Assembly: GCF_003627215.1 (NCBI RefSeq)
Contig: NZ_CP032678.1
Location: forward strand, 248,001 to 312,000
DNA: 64,000 nucleotides
Direction: 5' to 3'
From: Pseudomonas sp. Leaf58
GTDB lineage: Bacteria > Pseudomonadota > Gammaproteobacteria > Pseudomonadales > Pseudomonadaceae
Shown here: in pieces, positions 674 through 44,195 of the stretch
Position numbering within the stretch: position 1 is the first letter of the stretch
How the letters are laid out: each line of letters begins with the position of its first letter
The notes under the pieces: model-generated
What the model was told of the DNA's origin: nothing
Databases searched by the model: none
What the model saw: only the letters and a program-made list of their open reading frames with translations
Translations under genes and position numbers: made by a program

Positions 674-1378
674 CTAGAGCCCCAAGTCAAGCGTCAAGCT
701 GTCTTCAAGTATGCGTTCCTCTCGGATCTGATTCAGAAGCGCCTGGTCTCCGAACACCCGGTAGAGTTTATGCAGGGTGGCATTATCCAGTTCATACCCA
801 AGGAAAGACTTGGGATCGCCCTCCATGAGCAGCCCCTGGGTGAACAGTCGTAGAACCAGGTGTTTCTGGCAGGGTACCGGCATGAGGTTGATCAGGGCCT
901 GCAGGGACTGAGCATGCGACAGGGGTGTTCTCGGTTCGTATCGGGCCGCATAGGGCGTTAGCATGGATTCGTGCACCGCTGCATCGATGCTTACACCTAC
1001 CACATTCGCGAGTGACATGATGGCAGGGAAGGCGGTCTTCACGATGGCATCTGCCTCGTGCTCGGAAAATGCGCGTCGCCTGGTGGACAGCGCCCCTGAC
1101 TCAGACCTCAGGTAATTAACCAAGGCTTGATGGTAGAGTGCCGGCTGAAGGATGGGGCAATTGTCCAATAGCCCCTTGAAGTTATCCATGTATTGCTTGA
1201 ATGCGGCGGTCTGAGGGGCTTCGGGGATGCGCGCGTACGTAAACGCCACGTAGTGGATCAACAATTCAAAGCGCGCTCGGCACTCATGGGGTTGGGCAAC
1301 GAAGCCCAGGAGGCGGGTGCGCCGGGGATCATCGAAACGGATGTCGAGATGATAGACTTCATCGGTCGGCTGAGTCAT
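674..1378 (-). CDS. DLGL-tail family protein, C-terminal-half-only member
   Basis: The product has 234 residues, ends LTLDLGL, and carries the family's C-terminal block (LYRVFGDQALLNQIREE). It starts with HLDIRFDDPRRTRLLGF followed by ECRARFELL. This is the central D-D-P-R-R...E-C-x-x-R motif that lies near the middle of full-length members, so this protein corresponds to the second half only. The ATG is 3 bp after the stop of the frameshifted member upstream, making it the last gene of the operon that begins at 5526. It may be a natural stand-alone C-domain or a remnant; two other C-domain-only members begin at the same boundary. No function is known. Confidence 0.85.
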   Translation of the reverse strand: MTQPTDEVYHLDIRFDDPRRTRLLGFVAQPHECRARFELLIHYVAFTYARIPEAPQTAAFKQYMDNFKGLLDNCPILQPALYHQALVNYLRSESGALSTRRRAFSEHEADAIVKTAFPAIMSLANVVGVSIDAAVHESMLTPYAARYEPRTPLSHAQSLQALINLMPVPCQKHLVLRLFTQGLLMEGDPKSFLGYELDNATLHKLYRVFGDQALLNQIREERILEDSLTLDLGL

Positions 1379-1381
1379 TGA

Positions 1382-2661
1382 TCAAAGGCCCATGTCCGAT
1401 TCCAGCAGGTTGCTGCGCGCCACCTCGCTGATCAGGTGATTCAGAAACCGGTTATCTCCGGTCACTCGATAAAGCAGACCGCGCTGGCTGTCTCTAGTGA
1501 CGAGGGGGGCGAGCCATTCGGGCCCAAAGTGCTCTCCGATCGCCTTGATCATGGCGAACGATTTCGCATCGCCAACCAGGGCTGGGAACAGGGTGCCGTC
1601 CTCTGCCATGTAGTGAACCTTTCGGCCAAGGCTAGTAAACACGTGCTTTATCCCTGAGGCGAAGTCAACGCTAGCCTTGAGGTTTTCGATGCTGCCAAGG
1701 TTGTAGCCCTCGACCTGGGCTGCCCAGAGGCCTGCAAAGGGACTTGGGCCCTGTTTGAGTAAAAAGGTGAGGGCTAGGCTCGCTTGTTCGATCGACGCCG
1801 TGCAGGCAGGCGCAGGGGCGTTGCGAGCCTCAGCTCGCTGAATAGGCTTGCTGTCACCCATCGCCTGGGCAATGGTGTACCAGAGCAAGTCGGCATGTCG
1901 CTCCACAAAATCAGCGGGAACGCTGCTTGGTGGCTGGAACTGCTGGTAGGTGCCTGCATGGTTGAGGCTGTTGATGGCGCAAGGATGCGGGCGAACACCT
2001 CTTCAGCCTGCGGTTCCGACTGCCCCAGATAGAGTTTCCGGGTGTTGGGGGCCAGGGTGTCGTCACGAGTGTAGAACAGCCTCACAAGGGCGCTGCGGTG
2101 GGGCTTGCGCTTGCCACAGTTGTTCATCAGGAGGATGACGCGCTTGGTGTCATCGTGATCGATACACAAACCTAGATCACGCTCAATGTTCCCCAGGGTG
2201 GATTCATACTTCTTGACCCACTCGCGCTGGGTCGGGACATCCATGATGCTGAGCCGCCGAAAGCCCAGGCAGGCGTCTTCCAGTGACCCCCAGCCAGCCG
2301 TCAGCTGATCGATCCGAGGCATGAAACCGTCCATGCGGCTTCTCAATTCCTGCCGCACATTATCCGCTGTGCTCAGCCCCCTGTACGCCGCCTCGATGAT
2401 GTCCAGGGTGTGGTCGCCTGGATAGTGGGCGGCTGCCACCAGGATATTGAGCATTTCACAGCGCCTGGCATTGTCGGTCATGCCCAGCAGCGACGGGAAT
2501 CGCTCTTCCAGCTGCTGGCTCATCTGCAGCAGCGTCAAGCCGTTGTGCACAAGCGCGGTGATGATCAGCTCGACACATTGGTCGGGCGAATCCAGGCAGA
2601 GCGCCTCGATCGACGCATCGTAGACCGTGGCTATAGGCAAAGGCCTTATGATACCCATCAT
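1382..2661 (-). pseudogene. DLGL-tail family gene with a frameshift
   Basis: Two minus-strand frames together make one family-length protein of about 425 residues. The first part starts at ATG 2661 (MMGIIRPLPIATVYDAS) and stays natural to EEVFARI, then turns into low-quality sequence. A second frame takes over with HPCAINSLNHAGTYQQF, runs through WYTIAQAMGDSKP and ends LLESDMGL at 1382. The switch lies at about 1985-1995 and needs a single-base shift; no slippery heptamer is evident. The second frame on its own could start only at a GTG (1906) in the middle of the protein. The gene is either inactivated, mis-sequenced, or read by an unrecognised frameshift. It sits between two intact family genes with gaps of 2-3 bp. 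Confidence 0.75.
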
Positions 2662-2663
2662 GT

Positions 2664-4034
2664 TCAGAGCCCCAGATCCTGGGCAAGAATGTCCTGCCGC
2701 ATTTCTTCGTTTTCAATGATGTCCAGGAAGCGTGTCTCGCCTGAAGCCTCATAGAGCAATCGCGCCAGCTTCTCGTCCTTGTCGAGTGCCTGAATGAGCG
2801 TGCCTCGGTCATGACTCAGCACCCCGCCCAGCAGATGCATGGCGGTGAGCGTGGCGAAGTTCTTGGTAATCGTGTCATCCAGTTCTGTGTAGTGGTGCAG
2901 AAGGCGCTTGATAACAGCCTGCGGGCCTTTGCGCAGAAGATCGTAGGCATGACCTGGCATAAGGCCGCACACCCCACGCAGCAGCACCAGATCCAGGCCT
3001 ACCCCGAAATCGCGCAGCAGCTTGTAGCCCTGGGCGAACTCCAGCACCTTCGACTGGCCACCAACAACCGCTGGGTTTGGATCTACTTCGTCTTCACCCA
3101 GGTGCCCCCGGATAATTTCGATCAGGTCGGCAGCCAGGCAGTTGTTCAGGTAGAAGTCATTGCTGGCGCTCACATGTAGTACATGCTTGATTGCATCGAA
3201 TGCAGCCCCTGGTCGCGTGGCCTCTCCAGCCTTGCGCAACTGTGCCTCGACCCGGTTACTCAGTTCAGTAAGTCCTGGCTTTTCCTTACCCATGACCATG
3301 ATTCGAAGTGGGTCATTGTCAGCCAATGGATACTTGGGGAGTTGTTCCTTGGCGATCCAGTGGGTGATGTGCGCCTGAAAAGGAAATGCTTGTACGAAAT
3401 AGCGCAGCTGAGCAACGCATTGCTGCGAGTCGATCTTTTCTTTTTCGAACTGGCTAAACAGGGCATTCACGGCGAGCAGGATCTCTTGGGGAAGGAGCAG
3501 CCCCCGCAGAGCGGTCTCTGCGTGATCGCCTTCACAGGTGAAGGCCATCGGTATGTAGGCTTTGCAGGGCATGGCAGCCCTGGGTTTGGTCTTTGACTCG
3601 CGGATGCGCCAATAGTGCAGGTCGGTTTCAAGGTTACCTTGATTCAACTGCCACGCAACTTTGCGATGCTCACTTTCAAATTGACCCAGCACATCATGCT
3701 TGTGCAGAAACTCGCCCTCCGCCGCGAAAGCGCTGATCATCGGTTCGCGCAGGTGTTCATCAAGAAATGCCATGCACAGCGTGAAACCCAGTGCCTTGTC
3801 ATTAGGGGCGATACCCAAAACGTTACACAGGTGCTCCAGGGTATGACCATTGGCCTTAGCTGCCAGGAACCACTGCGCACACTCATCGCTCAGCGCGATT
3901 TGCTCCAACCGAATCGTGATGGATTCGATTTCAGATGGATGAATGTCATAGCGCTCACGGTGGGTGAGGGTGCGGTTGACCATTGAGTGGAACTGGTCGA
4001 CGGCTTGCTGGGAAAGGGAGCTGGGTGCGCGCAT
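2664..4034 (-). CDS. DLGL-tail family protein
   Basis: The product has 456 residues and ends ILAQDLGL after the block LYEASGETRFLDII. I chose ATG 4034 (MRAPSSLSQQAVDQFHSM) because the next gene upstream starts in the same way (MTAPRPLTQQAIRQFNSM) and the residues before it overlap that gene's 3' end. A CGGGA sequence lies 10 bp upstream as a weak ribosome site. The N-terminal 120 residues match the 4162-5526 product well (for example CMAFLDEHLRE), so the two are recent tandem duplicates. The 127-bp gap between them holds no further gene. Function is unknown; the sequence looks helical and lacks an export signal. Confidence 0.85.
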   Translation of the reverse strand: MRAPSSLSQQAVDQFHSMVNRTLTHRERYDIHPSEIESITIRLEQIALSDECAQWFLAAKANGHTLEHLCNVLGIAPNDKALGFTLCMAFLDEHLREPMISAFAAEGEFLHKHDVLGQFESEHRKVAWQLNQGNLETDLHYWRIRESKTKPRAAMPCKAYIPMAFTCEGDHAETALRGLLLPQEILLAVNALFSQFEKEKIDSQQCVAQLRYFVQAFPFQAHITHWIAKEQLPKYPLADNDPLRIMVMGKEKPGLTELSNRVEAQLRKAGEATRPGAAFDAIKHVLHVSASNDFYLNNCLAADLIEIIRGHLGEDEVDPNPAVVGGQSKVLEFAQGYKLLRDFGVGLDLVLLRGVCGLMPGHAYDLLRKGPQAVIKRLLHHYTELDDTITKNFATLTAMHLLGGVLSHDRGTLIQALDKDEKLARLLYEASGETRFLDIIENEEMRQDILAQDLGL

Positions 4035-4161
4035 GGTGGATTCCCGAGTGGTTATGCTATCCATGATACGGGGGGAGACCGTCTCAAACCAAGGCCGCAA
4101 GACCTCGGGCAGTTGGTGACGGTGAATATCGTTAGGTGGACGCTTGATGCCCACCAGGCAG

Positions 4162-5526
4162 TTACAACCCCATGTCCACGGCGAGGATTTCTTCTCGCAA
4201 CTTCTCAGAGCGAACAGCGTTGAGCAGGCGCCTGTCACCAGACACGTCATATAGCATCTTGGCCTGATGTTCTTTCGTGCCAACGGCCTGAAGAATGACC
4301 TCGGGCTCGTGACTGAGGACACCTGCTAGCATATACTGTGCGGACACAGAGCCAAGGTGGCGCATCGGGTCGCCCGGCCCCAATTTTTCACACTCATGGA
4401 GTAAATACTTGATTGCGCCCTCCGAGCCTATAACATCCTGAGCGTTGCCTGCACTCAGGGTGCACGCACAACGCAACAAGATCCAATCAAGCGGTAATCC
4501 ATGCTCTCTCATCAGCCTGAAGCCATACGTGAACCCGGCAAGTGTTTCTTTGCCATTTTTGATTTCATCCTGCAAGTCCCTGTACTCATCGTCGACACTG
4601 ACTCGTAACGCGTCTTCTAAATCACATGCAAAGCAATGCTGGAAATACTCCTGATTCGACAGCGCGCCAAATACAAGGTTGTCGAACGTCTTTTTCATGT
4701 CGCTTAAGGAATTTAGGGTGTCCATGCCGTGCATCATGTCGAGCGTTTTGGTGCTGAGCTCGGTAAGCGAAGGTGACTTGTCGCCCATGACGTGGAGGCG
4801 CAGTATTTCATTGCCTTGCAACGGAAGCCGCTCCAGGAATTCCCTTGCGGTTTTTTGAATCAGCTCGATGTGAATGCGGCAGGCTGCCTCCAGGTTTTTC
4901 AGTTCGTTGATGCAAATGCTGACATCAATTCGACCATGTTCCCGACTGCTTAAAACGATAAAAACTTGTCTGGCAAGTTGACTGGGTTGAAGGGTGGCCC
5001 GCAAAGCCGTTTGGTCAGCACTCCCCTCAAGCGAGAAATCCAAGGGTACAAATGCTGTGCATGGGATGGGCTCAATAAAGGTGCTTTTGTTTTTCAGGCT
5101 CCATCTAGGGAAATCATTTTCAAGATTTCTGGCTGACAAATGGAAGACAGAGGAATTGGAGAGGTTTTCATAAGCTTTAACCAGGCCGAATTCATGAATG
5201 AACTCAACTTCGTCAGCCAGTGTGACGATCAGCTGTTCGCGCAGATGCTCATCCAGGAAGGCCATGCACAGGGTTTTGCTCAAGGCGATGTCATCGGGCG
5301 ATATACCGATTTGCTCGCACGCCTGGGCCAGCGTGTTGCCGCTCGCCTTGAGCGATGTGAACCACTCGGCGCATTCTTTGCTCAATCCCCGTTGCTCAAG
5401 CAAGATGGTGATGGCGGGGATTTCGTTCTGGGCCACCCGGTAGCGATCCTGATGCATGAGGATTCGATTGACCATCGAGTTGAATTGACGAATCGCTTGT
5501 TGCGTCAGGGGCCGAGGGGCTGTCAT
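4162..5526 (-). CDS. DLGL-tail family protein, first gene of its operon
   Basis: The product has 454 residues and ends ILAVDMGL after the block LYDVSGDRRLLNAVRSE. It is the closest paralogue of the 2664-4034 product (MVNRILMHQDRY and CMAFLDEHLRE segments shared). The ATG at 5526 is the first gene behind the promoter at 5556-5585. No signal peptide, membrane segment or catalytic signature is visible. Base composition is slightly more AT-rich than that of its neighbours in the first half. It heads a run of four family genes down to 674. Confidence 0.87.
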   Translation of the reverse strand: MTAPRPLTQQAIRQFNSMVNRILMHQDRYRVAQNEIPAITILLEQRGLSKECAEWFTSLKASGNTLAQACEQIGISPDDIALSKTLCMAFLDEHLREQLIVTLADEVEFIHEFGLVKAYENLSNSSVFHLSARNLENDFPRWSLKNKSTFIEPIPCTAFVPLDFSLEGSADQTALRATLQPSQLARQVFIVLSSREHGRIDVSICINELKNLEAACRIHIELIQKTAREFLERLPLQGNEILRLHVMGDKSPSLTELSTKTLDMMHGMDTLNSLSDMKKTFDNLVFGALSNQEYFQHCFACDLEDALRVSVDDEYRDLQDEIKNGKETLAGFTYGFRLMREHGLPLDWILLRCACTLSAGNAQDVIGSEGAIKYLLHECEKLGPGDPMRHLGSVSAQYMLAGVLSHEPEVILQAVGTKEHQAKMLYDVSGDRRLLNAVRSEKLREEILAVDMGL

Positions 5527-7108: not shown

Positions 7109-8086
7109 TTAGAGGCCCAGATCAACTGCCAGTGCTTCTTCACGCTGATTGGCTGGCATGGCTTCGATCAGTTCGAGATGCCCAGTGAGCTCATAGGCGA
7201 ACTGCCATTGCCAGGGCTCATGCAAGGCCTGATTGAGCGTGGAAGCGGGGGTTGAAAGGATCAGACTGGTGAGCAGCCGGGCTTTTGATGTCCTGATAAC
7301 TTGCTGGGAGGAATATTTGCCCGTACGGTCATCCAAGGCAAAATTGGCGAGGCTATTGAACCAGGCTTCAATGTTCGATTCCTCCCAGTCGGGCTTGCAG
7401 AAGGCTTCCCCAGCAGAGCAACGACCGTCACACAGCAGGGCCATCGAAATGATTTCGGCTGCCTGAGGGATTTTTTTGAGCACAAACCCCATGAGCCGAG
7501 CCAGCCTGTTGACCGCTTTGAGTGAACTATCAAGGTCTTCTCGCACTACCCCGCTAAAACCAATGTTAACGGACAGCGTTCGGGTCAGATTTTGCAGGTC
7601 TATTTGCGCCATGCTGCGCAAGTAATCTGTGTTCCTGCTAACCGCCTCCAACTGCGCATCAACCGCCTGCTCTGGCGTAGTCAACAGCAACTCATGTATT
7701 GGGCGCAACCGCGAAGGCATTGGGCTTGCCAAGCGAAAGGCGTCATTGAAACGCTCAGAGACCTCCCACAGCGTCATGAAATCACCGAGCCCAAGGGCCT
7801 GGCGCAGCAAAGCCGCTTCATCGCCCCACGAGCAGACCAACAATTTGCCCAAGGTCTGTTTTACTGCCTTATCCAGATTGGAAAGGCCCGTGTCGCAAAG
7901 CATTTGCAGGCATTGCAGTGCATCGGGACGGGCGTAGAGCTCCTGAATCGACAGGTAATCCGTGAAGGCTGGATTCATCATCTCGACTGCCAGCATCTTG
8001 AGGCCATGCCGGGACACCGGCTGGGGTTGTTCACTGGCTGGACGGTGCCTATCCAGAGGGGCGGGGGTTGTGATGTGGTGGGGCAT
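7109..8086 (-). CDS. DLGL-tail family protein, shorter member
   Basis: The product has 325 residues and ends ALAVDLGL after AYELTGHLELIEAMPANQ. I chose ATG 8086 (MPHHITTPAPL) because the open frame upstream of it runs through a terminator-like hairpin at 8108-8136 and would need a TTG start. No clear ribosome site precedes this ATG, so the start is uncertain; a later ATG before LAVEMMNPAFTDYL is possible. Compared with 400-450-residue relatives it lacks part of the N-terminal half. It stands 17 bp upstream of the paralogous membrane-protein genes and could be cotranscribed with them. Confidence 0.8.
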   Translation of the reverse strand: MPHHITTPAPLDRHRPASEQPQPVSRHGLKMLAVEMMNPAFTDYLSIQELYARPDALQCLQMLCDTGLSNLDKAVKQTLGKLLVCSWGDEAALLRQALGLGDFMTLWEVSERFNDAFRLASPMPSRLRPIHELLLTTPEQAVDAQLEAVSRNTDYLRSMAQIDLQNLTRTLSVNIGFSGVVREDLDSSLKAVNRLARLMGFVLKKIPQAAEIISMALLCDGRCSAGEAFCKPDWEESNIEAWFNSLANFALDDRTGKYSSQQVIRTSKARLLTSLILSTPASTLNQALHEPWQWQFAYELTGHLELIEAMPANQREEALAVDLGL

Positions 8087-8107
8087 GGTATCGTTCAACT
8101 GCAAGCG

Positions 8108-8136
8108 AAAACAGCGCCTTGGAATGGCGCTGTTTT
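8108..8136. terminator. Hairpin terminator behind the ProQ/FinO gene
   Basis: An 11-bp perfect inverted repeat (AAAACAGCGCC, 8108-8118, and GGCGCTGTTTT, 8126-8136) with a 7-base loop ends in a U-rich arm in either direction. It begins 22 bp after the stop of the ProQ/FinO-like gene and precedes the next gene's start, so it probably ends that transcript. Confidence 0.7.
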
Positions 8137-8158
8137 CTGGGTGAATGTCAGCCAACAA

Positions 8159-8752: not shown

Positions 8753-10048
8753 CTAGAGGCCGAGGTCATGCTCCAGGGCGGCATCGAGGCGTTCAGTCGA
8801 TTCGACCCTGACCAGGAACTGCGCATCACCCAGGTGCCGGTAAAGCTTCAAAAGTTGGTCATCATTCAATTTAAGGCTATACCATGTTTCAATCGGTATC
8901 CGCCGCAGCAGGACGTTAAGCCACACCGAACATTGCGTTTGTCGAGTGGGTGACACCGGATCTTCAGGAAGCACCTGCAGCAAGTCTGCAGCGCGATCTG
9001 CCAGGGTGGGTTCGCGACGTGACTGACATCGCTGATAGAGGTCTTTAGCCAATCCTGGTAGCAGCTTCGATTCGGATGGCGAGCGTACCAAGCTGGTGAC
9101 GATTTCATGGAAATTGACGCCACGGCTTTCAGCGTAATCCATCAGGGCATGCAGCGCCGGAATACCCGCCAGAGGAAAGGCAAACTCGTCCTCTGTATTG
9201 AGGCTGATTTGATCGAACACCTTGCGAAACTCATAGTCTTCGCCGCTGCGCCCGCGAGGCGCTGAAATAGAAACAAACGCGGCTACCGCTGTGTCCGCCA
9301 ACCCATTCTTCGGGCTCAGGATGTCTTTCCAGACCTGGTCGAACCGATCACGGATTTCAAAGACATGCATGGCCGGAAATTGATCTTCCCACACCGCCTT
9401 GCGGCGAACATCATCCTGAAAGAGATGGCGCGAATCGGCGACCTTCTGGTAGCGCCGGGTCAGTGCCCCACCTGGACGGCTCCCTTGTGCCAGCAGATTC
9501 GCCATGGCCCGCGAAAATCCGGCAGGGTTTTCGCAGAAAAGGTCATCCATGGTCTGGTACAGCAAAGCCGGGTAGAGATGCTGGAATGTTTCGGCGTGAT
9601 AGCGAAGCTGCTGCTCATCATCGAACAGCTTTGGCCGCTGCTCGACAGGCAGTTTCATTACCAGGGCCGGCCATTCCTGATCACCCAGATCAATCAGCGC
9701 GGGATGCTTGTCCTCGTAGGCCCTGAAGGCTTTCATGATCCGGGCCAGACCTGGGTGCTCATACGACAGCGCCAGCTTGACCCGGCCCACGAACTTGGCC
9801 ATGAGCGAGTTGTAGTCATGTTCCTCCATCCTCCGCATCACCTGTAGACAGCCCTCGAAGGAATGGTGTTTCTCCAGCGCCTGCAAAATGAAGCGCACGC
9901 CCTCCTGCCGGCAGTGCATGCTGACTGGGAGGGTAACTGGGGCCAATTGGGGTAGGGCGCAAAGCTCGGGCGCCTCCGAACCCGCCAGGCCGTGCCCGTG
10001 TGGATAGCACAGGTGCTTGGCCAGGTTTTTTCGATCGTTTGCAGCCAT
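8753..10048 (-). CDS. DLGL-tail family protein
   Basis: The product has 431 residues and ends ALEHDLGL after LYRHLGDAQFLVRVES. The N-terminal third carries the family motif as ALSYEHPGLARIMKAF, closely matching the upstream paralogue (SLSFEHPGLDKILDAF). A further shared element is the LYPALLYQTMDDLF segment at about residues 145-160. ATG 10048 is preferred to the TTG six bases upstream; it lies 2 bp beyond the upstream gene's stop, so translation is probably coupled. The sequence looks helical and soluble. Function is unknown. Confidence 0.85.
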   Translation of the reverse strand: MAANDRKNLAKHLCYPHGHGLAGSEAPELCALPQLAPVTLPVSMHCRQEGVRFILQALEKHHSFEGCLQVMRRMEEHDYNSLMAKFVGRVKLALSYEHPGLARIMKAFRAYEDKHPALIDLGDQEWPALVMKLPVEQRPKLFDDEQQLRYHAETFQHLYPALLYQTMDDLFCENPAGFSRAMANLLAQGSRPGGALTRRYQKVADSRHLFQDDVRRKAVWEDQFPAMHVFEIRDRFDQVWKDILSPKNGLADTAVAAFVSISAPRGRSGEDYEFRKVFDQISLNTEDEFAFPLAGIPALHALMDYAESRGVNFHEIVTSLVRSPSESKLLPGLAKDLYQRCQSRREPTLADRAADLLQVLPEDPVSPTRQTQCSVWLNVLLRRIPIETWYSLKLNDDQLLKLYRHLGDAQFLVRVESTERLDAALEHDLGL

Positions 10049-10050
10049 TG

Positions 10051-11430
10051 TCAAAGCCCCAACTCATGGACGAGTACGGATTCCAACACGCAGTCATCAA
10101 CGATGATGTCGCGCAGCCGCTTGTCATCGAACGCCAAGTAGAGCTTGAAGCGATCTGCGTCAGGCAGTGGCAATTCCAGCAGCCGATCCACTCCAGCTAT
10201 CCGGAGGATGCCATACGTCCAGAGCATGGCCGCATCAACCTGGCCATTGAGGCTGGGCATCGTTGTGATGAGCATGACCAATGCATCCGTCTCGCTCTTG
10301 ATGCCAGGATCTCCAGGTGAAGTCAGTGCATTGGCAAGCAGGATCGCAGGGGATAAACCCAAGTTTTCGAGCAGACGGTGCAAAGGCTGATACTTGAAAT
10401 AAAGAAAATCGATCACATTAGGCCCAGCATTGGGAAGGGGATCCAGGGCTTTGTGAATTTCCTGTTGTGTGACTCCACGCAAAGTTGTCGCAAGCTGCTG
10501 AGCAACAGCAGTTTGAAATTCGGTCAAATGCTCTTCGGCTTCCACCGAGAACCTCACAATCTGTTTTCTGATGACTGTCATAAGGTGCTGGCCCAACAGG
10601 TTGGGCGACACATCACCGCAGGCGTGGACAATCTCGGCATAGACGGAGACTGCCGCCGATGCGGCTTCGACTGACGCTTCGGAGGCCAAGTCCAGGTACT
10701 TTCTGCTGGTGAAAAAGGCCAGCACGTTATCGAGACGTTTTAAGCACTCCCCCGCAGTCGGTACGGCTCCAAGGATGGAGCAGCGGCGACGATCTGTCAG
10801 CGGACAATCCACTGCATGCACTGCTACCATGGTTTTCTCGACGCCCAGTCTGCAGAAAGCCCGCACCATGTTGCGGTGTGCGGTGGTGAGAAGTTCAAGG
10901 CTGTTCGGGCGCACCGCTTTGGTCATCCAGCGCTGGAATTGCAAAAAACGCTGATCGCCCGTGGCGGCCTCCTGGAAATAGCGGTCAATTTCCTGGTTGA
11001 CCCACGTGGGAAAGATCCAGCTCAAAATCTCCAGGCGATGGGGAATCTTGAGATCTTGCCCCACCAAAATCGGTAGATCCTCGGGGTCTGTGGATGCCAG
11101 GTATTTATCATCACTGCAGGTGGTGGCCAGGGTTGAGTGTTCAGCACCCAGGTCTTCCATGAAGGCGTCTAGGATTTTGTCCAGGCCAGGGTGTTCGAAG
11201 CTCAGTGACAGGAAGAGGCGGGTTCGGGCAATACCATCAAATTGCCTCACGTAGGCGCCATTGTGCTCATGAATACCCTGGTGATAGATCGCCAATGAAC
11301 CGAACTGGTCGAGCACCCGCAGCATGAAGTCAGCGCAATCAACCTTGCTCTGCTTCGAAAACGGTTCGATGACGTTGGTGAACCGATGCAACTCATCGAT
11401 GAGGTCGGCTTGTGCTTGGGTCAGGTGCAT
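10051..11430 (-). CDS. DLGL-tail family protein
   Basis: The product has 459 residues and ends VLVHELGL after LYLAFDDKRLRDIIVDD. It shows both internal family motifs: SLSFEHPGLDKILDAF near residue 85, and DRRRCSILGAVPTAGECLKRLDNV near residue 230. The latter aligns with the D-D-P-R-R...E-[CYF]-x-x-R motif. A GTG three codons upstream (11439) is an alternative start; neither start has a good ribosome site. It heads a two-gene operon with the 8753-10048 gene. The 137-bp region upstream has no clear promoter. Confidence 0.83.
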   Translation of the reverse strand: MHLTQAQADLIDELHRFTNVIEPFSKQSKVDCADFMLRVLDQFGSLAIYHQGIHEHNGAYVRQFDGIARTRLFLSLSFEHPGLDKILDAFMEDLGAEHSTLATTCSDDKYLASTDPEDLPILVGQDLKIPHRLEILSWIFPTWVNQEIDRYFQEAATGDQRFLQFQRWMTKAVRPNSLELLTTAHRNMVRAFCRLGVEKTMVAVHAVDCPLTDRRRCSILGAVPTAGECLKRLDNVLAFFTSRKYLDLASEASVEAASAAVSVYAEIVHACGDVSPNLLGQHLMTVIRKQIVRFSVEAEEHLTEFQTAVAQQLATTLRGVTQQEIHKALDPLPNAGPNVIDFLYFKYQPLHRLLENLGLSPAILLANALTSPGDPGIKSETDALVMLITTMPSLNGQVDAAMLWTYGILRIAGVDRLLELPLPDADRFKLYLAFDDKRLRDIIVDDCVLESVLVHELGL

Positions 11431-11567
11431 GGCTGTCACACTGGGTCAGATAAAAGTGGCGACAGTCTCTCAGCTGACACGGATTAATGCAATATTGATT
11501 TGTACAACACTGCCCCGATGTTTTGGCAGGCGTTGAGGCTGCCGTTTGTGGGCAAAAACGGCCTCGC

Positions 11568-12448: not shown

Positions 12449-13645
12449 TTACATGCCCAGCTCATGGGCCAGGAGGGTATCAGCCCGCCCAGGGGTGAGC
12501 AGCGCCTGTTTGAACCTGTTATCGCGCTTGAACAGGTAAAGCGCCAGCAAGGTGTCGGCATCTAGGTCGGCAGTGAGTAATTGCTCGCTTTCCTGGAGGT
12601 ACAAAAAGGCCGCACTTATAACGCTCCCAGCATCGACGCCCGCGTATTGGTCGAATGGCTTGTTCACCAGGCATTTTGCGCAAGTGGTAATGACAGCGCT
12701 GTAGGCAGAGGGGCTGGTCAGAAGAAAGTATGCATCCAGGTTGAAGCCATAGTTTTCCGCAGCCTGCAAGAATGCGGCATGTGCTGGGACGGCATTGTTG
12801 GAATTGAGGGTCACGTCCAACGTGCAATCCAGGGCGACCAGGCTTTCATGTATCTCAAGTATCATGCACTCCTGGTCTTCTTTGCACAGGGTGCCTGCTA
12901 TGGCGAAGAAATTCTTGATGGTGGCACGGAGCTTGTCTTCACTGCTATTCGTATCCAGCGCTTTCATGACCTTCAGCAAGCGCCTTTGACACTCGATAAG
13001 CGCGCTGCAGAAAGGCAAAACCCCCTGCCTGCGAGTGTCGTCCATGGTCACATCAAGGTCGATCAGCTTGAACAAGATAGTATCAGCGATTCTTTCGCTT
13101 GGCCTTTGCTCAAGGGTGGACAGCGAGGCAATAACCTTGCTGATGGCCTCGCCATTTTCAGCCACGAATTGATTGAGCTGTAATTGGGCGGCCAATGGAT
13201 TGAGGGAGATGAACGCCGTGGGGTTATGCAGCTGATTTCCCTGGTCATCCCAGAGCTGGGGAATGCGACGGACATCTGCTTCGGGCATGGCGTATCCCGG
13301 CTCATGAATGTGATTGGTAGTCAATTGGCCGGCAAAGTGCTGATGGATCTCTGCGAGGAACTCATCATAGCGCTCATGGTTGACCATCAACGAAAACTTG
13401 AGCAGCGCCAGGAATCCTTGCTCGGCCTCTTTGTCTTCATGGTCGTGGCGAAGCCATGCCGGCATGAATAGCGCCCTGATGACATCCAGGTTCTCATAGG
13501 CATCCAGCAGGTCGTTGAGCAGGCATACGGCCTCCATGGCCATCTGAACATGGGTTTCGCCGCTGCCATGGACAGCCTCGACATAGGCAAAGTCCTTGAT
13601 CCTGGCCAGGAAGGCCGCCTGCCGGCGTTCTAAGTTTGTGGGCAT
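12449..13645 (-). CDS. DLGL-tail family protein
   Basis: The product has 398 residues and ends LLAHELGM after LYLFKRDNRFKQALLTPGR. ATG 13645 (MPTNLERRQAAFLARIKDF) lies 1 bp after the stop of the upstream gene, so translation is coupled. Internal motifs are present in weaker form (SLMVNHERYDEFLAEI; DVTMDDTRRQGVLPF). It belongs to a subgroup with the next two genes, which share the layout of a LLDAYENL/LLDDYGHI segment and a W-D-x-Q-G-N stretch (QLWDDQGNQLHNP). Function is unknown. Confidence 0.85.
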   Translation of the reverse strand: MPTNLERRQAAFLARIKDFAYVEAVHGSGETHVQMAMEAVCLLNDLLDAYENLDVIRALFMPAWLRHDHEDKEAEQGFLALLKFSLMVNHERYDEFLAEIHQHFAGQLTTNHIHEPGYAMPEADVRRIPQLWDDQGNQLHNPTAFISLNPLAAQLQLNQFVAENGEAISKVIASLSTLEQRPSERIADTILFKLIDLDVTMDDTRRQGVLPFCSALIECQRRLLKVMKALDTNSSEDKLRATIKNFFAIAGTLCKEDQECMILEIHESLVALDCTLDVTLNSNNAVPAHAAFLQAAENYGFNLDAYFLLTSPSAYSAVITTCAKCLVNKPFDQYAGVDAGSVISAAFLYLQESEQLLTADLDADTLLALYLFKRDNRFKQALLTPGRADTLLAHELGM

Positions 13646-13646
13646 C

Positions 13647-14888
13647 CTAGAGCCCCATGTCATAGGCGAGCAACACGTCGGCCTTGTCGGGCGTGCGCAA
13701 CGCGTCCTTGTAGCGCTCATCACCCTTGAGCATGTACAGACAAAGCAAGGCATCACCACTCAAGTCGCTGGCCAAGAGGGCATCGTCATCCTGATTCAGC
13801 AGGAAAGCCGCGCACAGCACCCGACGCACAGGTTCTCCAACAAAGACACTGCTATTTCCGATAGGCAACTCAGCGGCAACACGCCTGAACACGTCCTGTT
13901 TGCGCGGGGCTTTCATCTGAAAATGCGTTGCTAAAAAATCGAGGTCATCGAACCCATGCGACCGCGCTTTACCGAGGAAGTCGGCGTAAGCATGGATGGC
14001 GCCAGCGTAGTCAACAAAGTTTCCATCATCGACCATTTCCTCAAACAGGTTTTGCGATATGCGGGCCAATGCCGATTGCTTAACAGGCGCATCCAGCGCC
14101 TGAAGGCAATCGAATAAACGCGCAACAGCAGAAGGAAGGTCAGTCCAGCCATCTTCTTGGCTCAATCGCCTCATGATCATGTGCAGGCGATTGGTAAATT
14201 CCTCACTGGCATCCAGGTGCCCAAGGAGGGCCATGCGGCGCGGGTCATCAATCGCCACATGCCCCATAGACATGAGGTCACACAGGTGCTTAACCACATT
14301 CTCGCGAAATGACGGTTCCAGCTCGGGGAGAGAGCTGATGACACGGAGCAGCGCAGGGCCATTTTGCTCATAAAAAGCTTGCAACTGACTGTCCACACTG
14401 GCTTTTCGCGTGGTAATGAAATGCACGGGATTGTGCTTCAGGTTGCCCTGGTTGTCCCAGAGCTTTGGTTTTTGCCGCTCATCGATCATCGGCGGCGTTG
14501 GGTAGTAGGTCATCATGGCGGTACGAGCAGCGTTGATGGCAAAGATCTGTGTGGGGTAATGCTTGCTGTGCTCTAGGTGTGCCTGCTCCAGGATTTGATC
14601 CAGGCGCTCGTGCTCGATAGCCAAAGCGTTCATGAACGCTCCAAATATTCCCAATTGAAAGTCTTCGTCCTGCAATTGATCCTGGAAGGTATCGGCAATG
14701 TTGCCAATGTGCCCATAATCATCCAGCAGGTCGCAGGCGAGCAGGATCGCGCTCCAAATCGTGCTGGAGTACTCCTGTGCTTTTCGGTTGGCGATATGCA
14801 GCTGCCGAAAGTCCTGCACGCGCTTGACGTAGGACTGTTTGAGGGCTGCGCTGGCTTGCTGGGTGCTCATTGTGTTTTCAGTGTTCAT
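13647..14888 (-). CDS. DLGL-tail family protein
   Basis: The product has 413 residues and ends LLAYDMGL after LYMLKGDERYKDALRTPDK. It is very similar over its full length to the next gene upstream: ILLACDLLDDY, NALAIEHERLDQILEQ, ARTAMMTYYPT, KLWDNQGNLKHNPVHFITTRKA, and HVAIDDPRRMALLGHLD. This makes them a recent tandem duplication. I chose ATG 14888 (MNTENTMSTQQ) because the paralogue also reads NPENPM-RTQ at this point. It follows the upstream stop by 4 bp. Confidence 0.87.
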   Translation of the reverse strand: MNTENTMSTQQASAALKQSYVKRVQDFRQLHIANRKAQEYSSTIWSAILLACDLLDDYGHIGNIADTFQDQLQDEDFQLGIFGAFMNALAIEHERLDQILEQAHLEHSKHYPTQIFAINAARTAMMTYYPTPPMIDERQKPKLWDNQGNLKHNPVHFITTRKASVDSQLQAFYEQNGPALLRVISSLPELEPSFRENVVKHLCDLMSMGHVAIDDPRRMALLGHLDASEEFTNRLHMIMRRLSQEDGWTDLPSAVARLFDCLQALDAPVKQSALARISQNLFEEMVDDGNFVDYAGAIHAYADFLGKARSHGFDDLDFLATHFQMKAPRKQDVFRRVAAELPIGNSSVFVGEPVRRVLCAAFLLNQDDDALLASDLSGDALLCLYMLKGDERYKDALRTPDKADVLLAYDMGL

Positions 14889-14892
14889 CCGT

Positions 14893-16110: not shown

Positions 16111-16192
16111 TGGATTTTCCGGATTCAGTTTTTCACCATTATTGAGTGTGCCGTACGACCCGGTCAAACCCAGCGACGCCTAGCGATTGACC

Positions 16193-17380: not shown

Positions 17381-17382
17381 GG

Positions 17383-19959: not shown

Positions 19960-19960
19960 G

Positions 19961-21247: not shown

Positions 21248-21249
21248 GG

Positions 21250-21912
21250 TCACAGTCCCAGATCCCCAGAAAGCACACCCTCAAGATGATGCTCACCCTG
21301 GATTTTATGGAGGAAGGTAGGACTAGGCCTGAGCTTGTAAAGGAACGCCCACTCTCTGTCACCGAGGTTTGCATTGAGCAGATTTTCTTCGGGCGTTCGC
21401 ATGAGGAATTCACGGTACAGCAAGGTGCTGACCTTGATATCCAAATCATTGTTGCACGCATCCACGGCTTGAGTGACAAACCTGCCGTACTGCTCAGCAT
21501 CCAGTCGCCCGACACCCCAACTACCGCCTACGACTGAAGCCGCCAGCCGGCAGATATCGGCTCCGATATCGCCCAGCGCGCTTAGAAAGACCGCTACATT
21601 TTCCTTGTAACTTGTAGTGATGTACCTGCCATCGCGCAGCACTGCGTAAAGATCAATGTTAAAATCCTCCATGCAGAAGCCAGGCATGTGATCCAACAAC
21701 CCTTTGAATGCGCGCACGCTTTTGCGAATGAATTCTTCAGCGGAGATACCCCCAGAGGCTTCCACGGCCTGGAGAGGGCGTGCAAAGTGATCGGCTAGAA
21801 GTTTGAGGCGCCTTGCATACTCGTTGGCACTAACATCCTCACCTAGAACCGCAAGCCTGATGGGGTCATTATGAGCCAGTTCTTTGAGGTGAACGGACTC
21901 ACTAAGACTCAC
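21250..21912 (-). CDS. DLGL-tail protein, C-terminal half of a split gene
   Basis: The product has 220 residues, starts at GTG 21912 and ends VLSGDLGL after LYKLRPSPTFLHKIQGE. It begins with HLKELAHNDPIRLAVLGE followed by EYARRLKLL, which is the central family motif, so it is the C-domain. The upstream N-half gene overlaps it by 4 bp (GTGA). Reading this frame upstream of the GTG gives natural-looking sequence (SEALRRYQVSLSES), so the pair may come from one frameshifted gene. Alternatively, the family may function as separable halves, since two other members are C-domain only. Confidence 0.75.
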   Translation of the reverse strand: MSLSESVHLKELAHNDPIRLAVLGEDVSANEYARRLKLLADHFARPLQAVEASGGISAEEFIRKSVRAFKGLLDHMPGFCMEDFNIDLYAVLRDGRYITTSYKENVAVFLSALGDIGADICRLAASVVGGSWGVGRLDAEQYGRFVTQAVDACNNDLDIKVSTLLYREFLMRTPEENLLNANLGDREWAFLYKLRPSPTFLHKIQGEHHLEGVLSGDLGL

Positions 21913-35328: not shown

Positions 35329-36408
35329 CTATAGACCCAGCTCCAGGGCCAGGAAATCATCCATTCGATTGTCAAACTCAGCCTGCTGTTCCGCAGTAAC
35401 AATGTCTTCGAGCATAAATTCCTTTGTCAAGTTGGTGCCCCTCGCCATAGACGGGTGGATAGCCTTGACTATGAAGTTGTTGGGCTGCAGCTCCCCACTG
35501 ATAGCGACCTTCCCAAGGAAGAAGATTGTGATGTTCCTTTTGTAGCCGTTGCTAACCTCAGTCCGAAATGCAGCCAGCAGGGCATCGCTCAATGCCTCAA
35601 AGCGTTTGCCTCGATTTTCGACCTCGAAATCCTTCAGCCTGGGGTGTCGAGACCTGAACTCATGACCCTTTACATCAGCGCTTCCCGGTGAATTCGCGGA
35701 ATCATCTCCATGCCCATGATTGAAGAAGAAAAAATCATCATGATAGAAATCACCATAATCCCGATCTTCAGGCGTTTGCGAAATTTGACTTCCAGCGGTC
35801 ATCGAGAACAAAGAGCATGCGCAATCGCCCCGGATCAATGAGTCCAGGTGCGACGACGATGTGTAATGGTGTTCATTGCTCAGCACGTTGGCTGCAGCCA
35901 GTGCGTCCTTGTCAACTTTGATGGAAAATTCAGATACCAGTTCAGCGTAGGGTTTTCCCATCAGCAGGTCGAAGAAAGCATCGATCTCACGCTGATCGGT
36001 TTCATCGAACGCCTTGTACAGCACGTCCAGATCACGCCAGAAATGCACATGCGATTCAAGCCATGGAATGCTGTCCTGGCTTGCTATGTGTCTGCGCAAA
36101 TCCATCAGCGCACTGTCATGCGGCCTTCTGAGCAGTTGGGAACCACCGAATCGTGCCCACAATCTGTCCTGCTTGCTTTTGTGCTGGTCAACCAGATGGC
36201 CGTAGTCAACCTTTTCAAAAGTCAGAAAGCTGACCAAGCACTGCAGCAGGCCCGCATCCATGTCCACGGTGTTTTTCAGCGGAATGTCGCGTGCGGGTTG
36301 TCCATCCGAGCGCCTGACGACGTTATAGACATCACGACAGCCACGCTTGAGGACATCCGTGATCAAGGTGTGACAGGCCAGGGGGATGATGTCGTGGTAG
36401 GTTTTCAC
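35329..36408 (-). CDS. DLGL-tail family protein, divergent member
   Basis: The product has 359 residues and ends FLALELGL. The start is GTG 36408 with AGGA nine bases upstream. Other family motifs are weak, so membership rests mainly on the tail and overall helical character. A distinctive Asp/His/Phe-rich loop (DYGDFYHDDFFFFNHGHGDD) lies at about residue 220 and could bind metal. A ribosome-independent link to the other DLGL operons is not evident. It is the only member next to the OmpA-like lipoprotein and lies more than 10 kb from the main cluster. Confidence 0.65.
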   Translation of the reverse strand: MKTYHDIIPLACHTLITDVLKRGCRDVYNVVRRSDGQPARDIPLKNTVDMDAGLLQCLVSFLTFEKVDYGHLVDQHKSKQDRLWARFGGSQLLRRPHDSALMDLRRHIASQDSIPWLESHVHFWRDLDVLYKAFDETDQREIDAFFDLLMGKPYAELVSEFSIKVDKDALAAANVLSNEHHYTSSSHLDSLIRGDCACSLFSMTAGSQISQTPEDRDYGDFYHDDFFFFNHGHGDDSANSPGSADVKGHEFRSRHPRLKDFEVENRGKRFEALSDALLAAFRTEVSNGYKRNITIFFLGKVAISGELQPNNFIVKAIHPSMARGTNLTKEFMLEDIVTAEQQAEFDNRMDDFLALELGL

Positions 36409-36785: not shown

Positions 36786-36787
36786 AG

Positions 36788-42078: not shown

Positions 42079-42331
42079 TAAAAGCGGCGCAGATTATGCC
42101 ACCGTTGACGTGGAGAATCGAGTGCGAATGGTTGTTCGCCGGCTGGCGAAAGCCCCATGGCGCGTGACGATCGGGTCTGCACAGAGGGCCCTGGGGGTGA
42201 TGTTGACCGACTAATCGAGACGGGCATTAAATCTGCCCGAAATTACATGAAGCTCTGCAACTTTATGTATATATATCGCGAATGCGCATACTGCATAATG
42301 AGATAAATTGCATGGTCACCCTGAGGCTGAA

Positions 42332-42874
42332 ATGACTATCTCTGTTGGCGTGATTTACTCGACATCGTCTGTGAGTGCCTTTTTTGAGGAGGGGCTGAAA
42401 GATGACGACGTGCTGAACGATCTTGTGCTGTATGAGTTCGAGACGGAGGTCGAAGGCGGGGTATTTCTGCGGGGATTGGACGACAGCTGTGGCTACGAAG
42501 AATGTGTGGTGCGTGAAGTGGAAGCCGACTCCGTCACTGCCAGGATAAGCTTTGGCAAAGGCCCTAGCCGCAGCGGCAAGTCTACAAAAGTGACCCTGGA
42601 CTCAGTTGCTGAGCGAATCGCCTATGAAAAGGGTGTCTCAGAAGGCGAGGGCTGGGCCGCTTACCACGTGTTGGAGCCCGAAGACCTGCAGAACTATCTT
42701 GATGCCACTGAAGCGTTCAAGAAAGCGGTAGAGTCAGGCCAGGCGCGCAGCTTGATCGACTTTATCAAAACCCCGGAGGAAATCGAAGCCTTGCAAGAAG
42801 CAGCATTGGATCGAGGCTTGGAACCTTCAAAAGATCAAGGTGTTCGTGACACAGGTTCAGTTATGGAGCCCTAG
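42332..42874 (+). CDS. Acidic hypothetical protein
   Basis: The product has 180 residues from ATG 42332, preceded by CTGAGG; an upstream ATG at 42312 is out of a good ribosome-site context. The first half is beta-rich and acidic (DDVLNDLVLYEFETEVEGGVF), and the second half helical (EPEDLQNYLDATEAFKKAVESG). The upstream 100 bp are very AT-rich (TATATATATC). It is convergent with the DLGL gene 42915-44195. No family is recognised. Confidence 0.6.
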   Translation: MTISVGVIYSTSSVSAFFEEGLKDDDVLNDLVLYEFETEVEGGVFLRGLDDSCGYEECVVREVEADSVTARISFGKGPSRSGKSTKVTLDSVAERIAYEKGVSEGEGWAAYHVLEPEDLQNYLDATEAFKKAVESGQARSLIDFIKTPEEIEALQEAALDRGLEPSKDQGVRDTGSVMEP

Positions 42875-42914
42875 AGCCATAAAGCCCACCAGGCAAGGAG
42901 ATGGCTACAAAACA

Positions 42915-44195
42915 CTAGAGGCCTAGGTCTGTGCCCAGCTGATCACCTGCGGCCCCCTCTGACATCCGCTCAAGGTACCGCTTTTCGCCTGTAAAGGCGT
43001 AAGCCGCTCGAAGCTGGGTGTCGGTTTTGGCACACTGGTCTACGTACTGCGGATCAACAAATACAAGCAATGAGTCTATTGCCATACCGTGGGCCTTGAC
43101 TGCTCTAACTTGGTTGCCTGACAAAGATAGCAAATCTCCGACATATTCCTGAGTCAACGTGGTTGCGCTGGAGATCTTGTCCAAGTACTCGCCTGGAGAG
43201 CGACGCTCGATGTGCTTGTAAAGGATCTGATGCCCTGGGATGCCAGCTTTATGCAGATCTTCGATAAGCACCTGCACCATGAAAGGATTGTCACTCATGG
43301 CCGCCGCCAGACAATCTTCAATCACTTCTGGATAGCGGGTTAGTAGCTCATAATAGCCAGGAATATACCTTAGACCATGGTCTTTTGAGCGAATTGCAAG
43401 TGAGTCCATGTTGTAAAGGCCTTCGTAGAACCCACATTGAGTCCCTATTTCAGGAGCGCTTTTGTAAAGTTGATGCCCTGAAATATCCAACCCAACGGAA
43501 GCCAGGGGGAATGAGGTGGTCTCTAACGCTTTAGCCTGACGAGAGATTCGGCATTCGACCTCCATCATTGATGGCGTGGTCATTTCAGCCCAGCTGCGAA
43601 CACTGGATAGGGGGTCAAACACAGTCTTTGCCAAGGCCGCACAAAGACTTTTTCTAAAATCACGAGAGAAAACCGACTTGGATATTTTTTCCACCATGGG
43701 AGCATCATCAAAAATTACGGCAAGCTGGAGAAGCGTGTCCTGAACTGAGAATGCCTCATTGAGATCCAACCAGTTTTCAACTGATGTATTTTTGAATGCA
43801 AGGTAGGGGTTGATTGGATTGCGATCCAAGATCCAACGGATTGTGTCGTAACAATCTCGTATCAGCAACGCGTCTAACTCTGCGAATTTTTCAAGAATGT
43901 ACTCCAGCAAATCATCATAATCACCACATGGCGCGCTCAGTGCAAAAGCGACGTTTGCAATGAAGATGTCAACGGCTTCGCGATCGTCCCGCTCCGACTT
44001 GGGTGTCGACGCAACCGCGTCCAGAAGATCATCGATACCTGTGTTGTTGAGCATGTGCTGCCTGAAGGCCGACTGGCAACTGCGCTGCACCTCGCCCGAA
44101 ATGAGTTCAGGGCATTCGTCATACGGTCGTGCCCCGTCGCTATTCATGCGATTGTTCAGCTGCAAGCCAGCAAAGCCAGTCAAAAGCGAGGTCAT
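42915..44195 (-). CDS. DLGL-tail family protein, outlying member
   Basis: The product has 426 residues and ends LGTDLGL after AYAFTGEKRYLERMSEG, the family C-terminal block. ATG 44195 is preceded by AGGAA. The composition is more AT-rich than the main cluster. Segments such as EYILEKFAELDALLIRDCYD fit the E-x-x-L-D motif weakly. A candidate promoter has TATACT at about 44223-44228 inside a CAGTAT-ACATACTG near-palindrome. It lies alone, 20 kb from the main cluster, showing that the family is not confined to one locus. Confidence 0.82.
   Translation of the reverse strand: MTSLLTGFAGLQLNNRMNSDGARPYDECPELISGEVQRSCQSAFRQHMLNNTGIDDLLDAVASTPKSERDDREAVDIFIANVAFALSAPCGDYDDLLEYILEKFAELDALLIRDCYDTIRWILDRNPINPYLAFKNTSVENWLDLNEAFSVQDTLLQLAVIFDDAPMVEKISKSVFSRDFRKSLCAALAKTVFDPLSSVRSWAEMTTPSMMEVECRISRQAKALETTSFPLASVGLDISGHQLYKSAPEIGTQCGFYEGLYNMDSLAIRSKDHGLRYIPGYYELLTRYPEVIEDCLAAAMSDNPFMVQVLIEDLHKAGIPGHQILYKHIERRSPGEYLDKISSATTLTQEYVGDLLSLSGNQVRAVKAHGMAIDSLLVFVDPQYVDQCAKTDTQLRAAYAFTGEKRYLERMSEGAAGDQLGTDLGL

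What the first reader, a model, noticed from the sequence alone, without database searches (positions are those of the whole stretch)
674..44195. An expanded protein family defined by a C-terminal [DE]-[LM]-G-[LMI] tail
Nineteen loci in the window encode proteins that end, directly at the stop codon, with DLGL, DMGL, ELGL, ELGM, DLGI or a near variant (DLCL, and ACD in a remnant). The tail is preceded by a shared block Y-x3-G-D-x-R-[FLY]. Many members also share an E-H-x-x-L-D motif near residue 85-110 and a D-x-x-R-R...E-[CYF]-x-x-R motif near residue 225. Otherwise the proteins differ strongly. A tail fixed at the very end while the body diverges is typical of a recognition tag: for secretion, for assembly onto a common partner, or for turnover. 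Delivery by a type IV secretion system is one possibility, since the element carries pilus-type genes. I know of no described family with this feature.
Basis: partly seen in the sequence, partly recalled or inferred. Interest (0 to 1): 0.85.

Follow-up and report, generated by a model that had tools for sequence, protein, structure and literature searches.

The report
Megaplasmid-wide C-terminal protein address tag
About one in eight proteins of a giant Pseudomonas-type plasmid, mostly unrelated to one another, ends in the same short tail, and related plasmids use their own versions of it, which points to a private address label read by an unknown partner, perhaps the plasmid's own secretion machine.

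Summary
The window lies in a 904-kb megaplasmid related to pMPPla107. All 19 loci are there (18 intact, 1 remnant), but the tail is not a family trait. On the whole plasmid 131 of 1117 ORFs end [DE][LMI]G[LMI] (0.28 expected); on pMPPla107 162 of 1152 (0.32 expected); in 220 kb of the own chromosome 0 of 226. The tailed bodies form 124 sequence clusters; of 225 scanned, 3 match Pfam, one convincingly. A search blind to the motif finds a 14-residue C-terminal module in four Pseudomonas-type megaplasmids (two only sampled), each with its own version, and none in samples of Vibrio, Bosea and Methylorubrum megaplasmids. Of 72 orthologue pairs with a tail on either side, 59 have it on both, at a median body identity of 26%. 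The variable tail positions follow the plasmid, not the gene: they name the plasmid in 282 of 297 cases, which implies one reader per plasmid. Tailed proteins look soluble and are almost absent from the replication and transfer backbone. Best guess: a C-terminal signal for the plasmid's own Dot/Icm-type secretion and conjugation machine; rivals are scaffold docking and turnover. Reader and translocation are inferred, not shown.

The parts
674..1378 (-). tailed protein, large helical family (N-terminally short); ends LTLDLGL
1382..1906 (-). tailed protein, large helical family (short); ends LESDMGL
2664..4322 (-). tailed protein, large helical family; ends LAQDLGL; true start probably downstream
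4162..5526 (-). tailed protein, large helical family; ends LAVDMGL
7109..8158 (-). tailed protein, joins the large family only in the iterative HMM (it was not a seed); ends LAVDLGL
   Evidence: not in the non-overlapping ORF set
8753..10054 (-). tailed protein, large helical family; ends LEHDLGL
10051..11439 (-). tailed protein, large helical family; ends LVHELGL
12449..13759 (-). tailed protein, large helical family; ends LAHELGM
13647..14966 (-). tailed protein, large helical family; ends LAYDMGL
14893..16167 (-). tailed protein, large helical family; modelled as 14893-16110; ends LANELGL
16193..17392 (-). tailed protein, large helical family; ends LAQDMGL
17383..18663 (-). tailed protein with variant tail MEADLCL; its place in the large family rests on a profile it helped to build
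   Evidence: partner in pMPPla107 ends in DLGL
18664..19995 (-). tailed protein, large helical family; ends LSSDLGI
19961..21253 (-). tailed protein, large helical family; ends LSTELGM
21250..21912 (-). tailed protein, large helical family (short); ends LSGDLGL
22813..23457 (-). tailed protein NOT in the large family; ends LECDLGL
   Evidence: no Pfam match
35329..36408 (-). tailed protein NOT in the large family; ends LALELGL; orthologue in pMPPla107 ends DLGL
   Evidence: no Pfam match
42915..44261 (-). tailed protein, large helical family by profile and by its cluster; ends LGTDLGL; orthologue in pMPPla107 (34% identical) also tailed
55076..56644 (-). context: pilin-like protein with N-methylation motif and shufflon constant region
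56679..58292 (-). context: second such protein (shufflon score just under the curated cut-off)

Best explanation
The tail is a 14-residue C-terminal address tag. In the two megaplasmids scanned whole it is carried by roughly 130-165 soluble, fast-evolving, mostly unrelated proteins each, and it is read by one plasmid-encoded partner that has co-evolved with it, so that each plasmid has its own version. Shown by computation: the tag, its spread over bodies without detectable homology, its plasmid-specific versions, its near absence from the backbone and its absence from the chromosome sample. Inferred from that: one reader per plasmid. [quoted passage not shown]
For: Tag: 131/1117 and 162/1152 ORFs against 0.28 and 0.32 expected; 0/226 in the chromosome sample. 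Pattern scan of the own genome: 112 hits; the only two listed on the 5.43-Mb chromosome end in TGG, not a stop; reversed control 5 (list cut within C2). Unrelated bodies: 124 clusters by phmmer with the last 30 residues removed; of 1140 profile pairs compared by hhalign 12 exceed probability 50. Conservation: of 72 orthologue pairs with a tail on either side 59 have it on both, and five of the other 13 have near-variants; median body identity of the 59 is 25.6%, of 415 untailed pairs 49.1%. Shared reader: at positions -14, -11, -10, -7 and -6 (picked from the logo) orthologues agree at 0.21, unrelated proteins within a plasmid at 0.36 and 0.31; with whole homology clusters left out, residues -14 to -5, which the tail pattern does not use, name the plasmid in 282/297 cases, ten upstream residues in 152/297. 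Versions found blind in four megaplasmids. T4BSS: DotM domain E=2.4e-33 and a T4CP, Dot/Icm-type clusters in kin, DotM in all four tagged plasmids. Soluble: 1/290 with a TM-like stretch against 193/1244 untailed. Backbone 1/145 and 0/146 tailed, rest 127/603 and 162/640. Precedents: DotM binds C-terminal Glu-rich signals and its authors suggest co-evolved interfaces in other species (PMC5802825, passages); F-type pED208 translocates plasmid proteins (PMC11288057, abstract and passages; PMC8406263, start of abstract in a listing).
Against: No translocation and no binding was shown. The Vibrio vulnificus megaplasmid has a homologous system (DotO 40%, DotM 26% identical), but no C-terminal motif was found in its sample of about 300 kb. 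The versions differ in charge (acidic in this plasmid, basic K-11/R-10 in FeN3W), whereas DotM's ligands in the paper are acidic. Of the Legionella DotM residues needed for binding, R314 aligns with a conserved R in all four plasmid DotMs in a well-aligned stretch; R217 (with R/K) and R196/R197 (with N, D or E) fall where the alignment is not significant (positions counted by hand). FeN3W's DotM is closer to ours (61%) than P. silesiensis' (53%), yet FeN3W's tag is the more different one. Tagged proteins show no effector-type enzyme domains.
Confidence: 0.45

Rival explanations
1. Docking tag: the tail anchors many different proteins to a plasmid-encoded scaffold, hub or compartment, like dockerins or encapsulation peptides (both recalled), without secretion.
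For: Everything that shows a tag and a shared plasmid-encoded reader fits equally. Hydrophobic residues recur four apart (-11, -7, -3) and in the one model the end is predicted as a short helix followed by the last residues. That model is all-helical and resembles helical repeat proteins only weakly.
Against: No scaffold candidate was found, but none was searched for systematically. The tag is almost absent from the replication, partition and transfer backbone.
Confidence: 0.25
2. Turnover tag: the tail is a degron or protective end read by a protease or its adaptor.
For: C-terminal hydrophobic ends are common degrons (recalled).
Against: The versions differ among plasmids whose named hosts are all Pseudomonas, so a conserved host protease is an unlikely reader (inference); a quarter of the ORFs of 150 aa or more outside the pMPPla107 backbone (162/640) would be under such control.
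Confidence: 0.1
3. The tail is the conserved end of one very old, very divergent protein superfamily, not a separate tag.
For: Several clusters do merge by profile comparison: one group of six clusters and smaller ones of 3, 2, 2 and 2. Only one fold could be predicted. The tail is predicted with fair confidence as part of that model (pLDDT about 82-85).
Against: 1128 of 1140 profile pairs do not exceed probability 50; 72 planned pairs were not run and clusters with one member were not compared. One tailed protein has a partial TerD domain while three other TerD proteins of the same plasmid are not on the tailed list. The variable tail positions follow the plasmid, not the gene.
Confidence: 0.12
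4. The tail binds a conserved host protein, such as the beta clamp, whose C-terminal ligands can look similar (QLxLxL; recalled).
For: L-x-L at the very end.
Against: No conserved Q at -6 (E, G, A or S instead); plasmid-specific versions in hosts of one genus.
Confidence: 0.04

Closest known systems
C-terminal translocation signals of Dot/Icm (type IVB) substrates (E-block/DotM; FxxxLxxxK/LvgA; hydrophobic end of RalF)
   Same: At or near the C-terminus, short, on many different proteins, hydrophobic residues near the end, helical spacing; the plasmids encode DotM and a Dot/Icm-type system
   Different: Those signals are of several types and differ between effectors (passages); here one sharp 14-residue motif is shared by over 100 proteins and changes in concert per plasmid. 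Translocation not shown.
Proteins moved by conjugation systems (F-type pED208, IncI1 primase)
   Same: A conjugative plasmid sends its own proteins into the recipient (PMC11288057, abstract and passages; PMC8406263, start of abstract; IncI1 work seen only as titles in a reference list)
   Different: At least 16 plasmid and 32 chromosomal proteins for pED208; no shared sequence tag is reported in the passages I saw, where signals are C-terminal or internal
XVIPCD effectors of the Xanthomonas killing T4SS (recalled)
   Same: Conserved C-terminal recognition part on diverse bodies
   Different: A domain of about 120 residues of a type IVA system, against 14 residues here
C-terminal sorting signals such as PEP-CTERM, LPXTG, type IX CTD (recalled)
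   Same: Found as a recurrent C-terminal motif in one proteome
   Different: Those proteins carry signal peptides; tailed proteins here have no hydrophobic stretch in the first 45 residues (0/290)
T4 phage internal proteins with a capsid-targeting sequence (recalled)
   Same: Short fixed end, divergent bodies, cargo delivered with DNA
   Different: N-terminal, cleaved, loaded into a capsid

Membership tests
Dot/Icm (type IVB) secreted substrates | recognition signal at or near the C-terminus | tested here: met
   motif concentrated in the last 14 residues
Dot/Icm (type IVB) secreted substrates | encoded in a cell with a type IVB system including coupling proteins | tested here: met
   DotM and a T4CP on the own plasmid, IcmB/DotO-type ATPase; gene clusters in kin
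Dot/Icm (type IVB) secreted substrates | no classical signal peptide | tested here: met
   0 of 290 with a hydrophobic stretch in the first 45 residues; simple hydropathy only
Dot/Icm (type IVB) secreted substrates | Glu-rich E-block for DotM-dependent substrates | tested here: inconclusive
   Glu at -14, -10, -6 in this plasmid; basic residues at -11/-10 in FeN3W
Dot/Icm (type IVB) secreted substrates | translocation that depends on the system | not testable with these tools
   needs an experiment
Single homologous protein family | bodies related by descent | tested here: not met
   12 of 1140 profile pairs exceed probability 50; the window set alone is mostly one family. Relations too old for profiles are not excluded
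Membrane or wall sorting signals (PEP-CTERM, LPXTG) | transmembrane segment next to the motif | tested here: not met
   1 of 290 tailed proteins has a TM-like stretch anywhere
Beta-clamp binding ends | Q at -6 of a QLxLxL end (recalled) | tested here: not met
   -6 is mostly E/G/A/S on C2 (Q 7%), G/A/S in pMPPla107 (Q 3%)
Known protein domain families (Pfam, NCBIfam, PHROGs) | match of the bodies to a curated family | tested here: not met
   Pfam at E<=0.01: three families, one protein each, among 125 tailed C2 proteins, one convincing (TerD), and none among 100 of pMPPla107; NCBIfam 1 weak, PHROGs 1 family without a name
Known helical solenoid folds | structural match over the domain | tested here: inconclusive

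The most novel reading that the evidence does not exclude
Each megaplasmid of this group runs a private protein-addressing code: over a hundred unrelated proteins carry one short C-terminal word that an unknown plasmid-encoded reader recognises, and word and reader drift together so that each plasmid addresses only its own proteins. Reader and destination could be of a kind not yet described.
Probability: 0.35. Interest if true: 0.95.

Novelty: new variant of a known kind. Interest (0 to 1): 0.87.

Why it matters
It gives a shared handle on some 130-165 proteins per fully scanned plasmid that have almost no known domains, and turns 'hypothetical proteins of a megaplasmid' into a testable set with one common fate. 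The plasmid-specific versions let reader and tag be matched by comparison of plasmids. If the tag is a secretion signal, these conjugative megaplasmids deliver a set of proteins within reach of that of Legionella (over 300, as stated in PMC5802825), and the origin of such sets in conjugation becomes testable. pMPPla107 is described as self-transmissible among Pseudomonas species and was studied in P. stutzeri (PMC4105467, passages), so the tests are feasible.

Tried and rejected
Chance ends or a composition bias: rejected. One protein family defined by the tail: rejected as stated. Phage origin: one PHROGs family without a name in 125 proteins, no phage match for the one tailed protein tried, no viral-contig relatives for two tailed proteins, no BFVD match at E<=0.001. 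Defence proteins: PADLOC gave one weak match in 125. Wider distribution: none of 297 other genomes of the genus with the family profile (six candidates scored per genome in the rows shown), none of 397 with one tailed protein; in the plasmid collection two window proteins had no match and two other tailed C2 proteins matched only pMPPla107 or pMPPla107, FeN3W and P. silesiensis; two scans of genome contigs found no kin plasmid. SecA of the plasmid as reader: it is present in Vibrio kin as well, the untagged V. vulnificus one included, so it is no better a candidate than DotM. A search for backbone proteins that, like the tag, diverged more in FeN3W than in P. silesiensis: 24 proteins could be compared, the top two are a TerF-like vWA protein and a 141-aa protein without a Pfam match; no reader could be named. 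PDB sequence search gave mostly designed helical proteins and weak hits; Foldseek against PDB did not run; the VIA second look had no match above its own level for helical proteins. The second structure job was not used. Literature: searches for the motif or a megaplasmid-wide tag found nothing relevant (one search found T4SS and conjugation papers only); the 2019 paper on this plasmid family is not held.
Full report
WHAT WAS CHECKED. The window is G000:C2:248001-312000 of a 904,163-bp contig in a genome with a 5,431,558-bp chromosome. Its nearest named relative is pMPPla107 (NZ_CP031226.1, 971,889 bp). A paper passage gives Pseudomonas sp. Leaf58 pBASL58 as 16.6% of its chromosome (PMC13342612, one passage); C2 is 16.6% of the chromosome by the lengths above, so C2 is probably pBASL58. 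That is an inference.

THE TAIL IS PLASMID-WIDE. Among non-overlapping ORFs of 60 aa or more, 131 of 1117 on C2 and 162 of 1152 on pMPPla107 end in [DE][LMI]G[LMI], against 0.28 and 0.32 expected from the motif's internal rate; 0 of 226 in 220 kb of the own chromosome (0.07 expected), and only 3 of 3426 and 1 of 2972 overlapping ORFs. ORFs are mechanical, with starts not verified. A pattern scan of the whole own genome (tail core plus a codon of L/F type at -7) gave 112 matches; the only two listed on the chromosome end in TGG, which is not a stop; the reversed pattern gave 5 (places are listed in contig order and the list is cut at 809 kb of C2).

THE BODIES DIFFER. The 297 tailed ORFs of both plasmids (overlapping ones included, a few of them probably chance) fall into 124 clusters when the last 30 residues are removed. 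Profile comparison of the 24 largest clusters with the 63 multi-member clusters, last 25 residues removed, was done for 1140 of 1212 planned pairs: 12 exceed probability 50. They join six clusters into one large family and make small groups of 3, 2, 2 and 2. The window's set is mostly that large family; the iterative HMM included 31 own and 60 pMPPla107 ORFs, three of them without the tail, the remnant among these (pMPPla107 not complete in that call). Pfam at E<=0.01 gave three families with one protein each in 125 tailed C2 proteins, one convincing (TerD), and none in 100 of pMPPla107. As a control, 40 untailed proteins of the same part of C2 gave 32 families at the stricter E<=0.001; they were drawn from 179 that have an orthologue, which favours known domains, and how many of the 40 match is not told. 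Of 134 tailed C2 ORFs three crossed stretch borders and six were left out for size, as close copies or as probable chance tails; the 100 were at most two per cluster.

A MODULE OF 14 RESIDUES WITH LOCAL VERSIONS. A two-component model of the last 14 residues, not told the motif, was fitted to ORFs of 120 aa or more. Log-likelihood gain, and the gain on one column-permuted copy (fitted with fewer starts): C2 1030 and 176 (148 of 856 ORFs are members); pMPPla107 1275 and 176 (163 of 901); P. silesiensis pPL1, 400 kb, 353 and 143 (26 of 379); Pseudomonas sp. FeN3W plasmid, 400 kb, 337 and 131 (51 of 348). No gain over the permuted copy: chromosome sample 114 and 111 (n=174), V. vulnificus plasmid 134 and 138 (n=268), Bosea 80 and 74 (n=76), M. 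extorquens 65 and 62 (n=54); the last two samples are small. Two of the 20 pPL1 stretches and one of the 20 FeN3W stretches were placed to cover weak family hits, and eight or more of the pPL1 tails come from one such stretch, so the sampled fractions are not unbiased. Versions: C2 E-14, L/R-11, E-10, L-7, E-6, DLGL; pMPPla107 R-11, D-10, F/L/M-7, G/A-6, DLGL; pPL1 L-14, L-11, G-10, F-7, S/G-6, DLGL; FeN3W K/R-11, R/K-10, I/L-7, S-6, S-5, D-L/F-x-L/I. Of 13 homologues of tailed C2 or pMPPla107 proteins found in each sample, 10 in FeN3W and 9 in pPL1 are members of the local version (listing); several of the rest match ORFs whose tail is probably chance.

ORTHOLOGUES AND THE SHARED READER. Of 487 reciprocal best pairs between C2 and pMPPla107, 59 are tailed on both sides, 415 on neither, 13 on one side. 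Among the 13 are five near-variants (DLAL, DLCL, NLGI, DMSL, DLGF), and some pairs where the tail is probably chance. Median identity is 25.6% for the 59 and 49.1% for the 415. Many tailed pairs lie in collinear runs, others do not. At five version positions, picked from the logo, orthologues agree at 0.21, unrelated proteins within C2 at 0.36, within pMPPla107 at 0.31, and random pairs between plasmids at 0.18. Leaving out the whole homology cluster each time, residues -14 to -5 name the plasmid in 282 of 297 cases; residues -34 to -25 in 152 of 297. A short sequence that evolves in concert over more than a hundred unrelated genes needs a common selecting partner, and since the named hosts of the other three are all Pseudomonas, that partner is most simply encoded by the plasmid.

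PROPERTIES. Tailed proteins of 150 aa or more: 1 of 290 has a TM-like stretch and none in the first 45 residues; untailed: 193 of 1244 and 79 of 1244 (simple hydropathy). Tailed and untailed genes differ little in GC (0.552 and 0.560; 0.523 and 0.535). The backbone is nearly free of tails: C2 0-150 kb and 870-904 kb 1 of 145, rest 127 of 603; pMPPla107 0-160 and 940-972 kb 0 of 146, rest 162 of 640 (Fisher p 3.5e-12 and 8.7e-17; the borders were chosen after seeing the distribution, so these p-values flatter). The one backbone tail is probably chance, as its orthologue ends otherwise. The pMPPla107 backbone holds DnaE, DnaB, DnaG, partition genes and the secretion system.

MECHANISM. C2 encodes DotM (E 2.4e-33) and a coupling-protein ATPase, an IcmB/DotO-type ATPase and a further T4SS-family ATPase, and the kin show Dot/Icm-type gene clusters with PilO2 and radical SAM/SPASM genes next to them. 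In Legionella DotM recruits proteins with acidic Glu-rich C-termini, and its authors suggest that other DotMs may have co-evolved with other C-terminal tails (PMC5802825, passages); LvgA reads FxxxLxxxK on a C-terminal helix (PMC7251119, passages). Pseudomonas putida IsoF kills with a type IVB system (PMC9519443, start of abstract in a listing), and pMPPla107 transfer needs a type IV system (PMC4105467, passages). This makes secretion the best guess, at about 0.45 for the whole chain. The tag with a shared plasmid-encoded reader I hold at about 0.85. Against secretion stand the untagged Vibrio sample, the changing charge, the inconclusive DotM residues, and DotM identities that do not follow tag similarity.

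NOVELTY. C-terminal secretion signals are known; one sharp tag on 12% and 14% of the ORFs of two replicons, with a version for each plasmid, was not found in what I could search. I file it as a new variant of a known kind, with a categorically new reading kept open.

Noticed in passing
G000:C2:885153-887699: The megaplasmid encodes a SecA-type ATPase (848 aa), conserved in pMPPla107, the FeN3W and P. silesiensis plasmids and Vibrio megaplasmids; SecA genes also occur in other records of the plasmid collection.
   Followed up: partly
NZ_CP031226.1:96552-111562 (L247, L249) and L178, L180: Several radical SAM/SPASM genes sit beside the Dot/Icm-type cluster in Pseudomonas and Vibrio megaplasmids; substrate unknown.
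   Followed up: no
G000:C2:449860-451491: This ORF is the partner of a tailed pMPPla107 protein but lacks the tail; a tail-like end matches at 449903-449926, by its distance in another frame, so the end of the gene may be disrupted.
   Followed up: no
window 8159-8677: A ProQ/FinO-family protein lies between the tailed genes.
   Followed up: no
window 44300-44833: A Fic/DOC-family protein directly upstream of the tailed gene 42915-44261, itself without tail.
   Followed up: no
window 37439-41669: Plasmid-borne parE and parC (matches to pMPPla107); pMPPla107 also carries DnaE, DnaB, DnaG, thymidylate synthase and other replication and nucleotide genes.
   Followed up: partly
G000:C2:740462-741616, 796028-797188, 844800-845378, 784481-785344: TerD- and TerF-like proteins on the megaplasmid; of these only the first, with a partial TerD domain, is on the tailed list.
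   Followed up: partly
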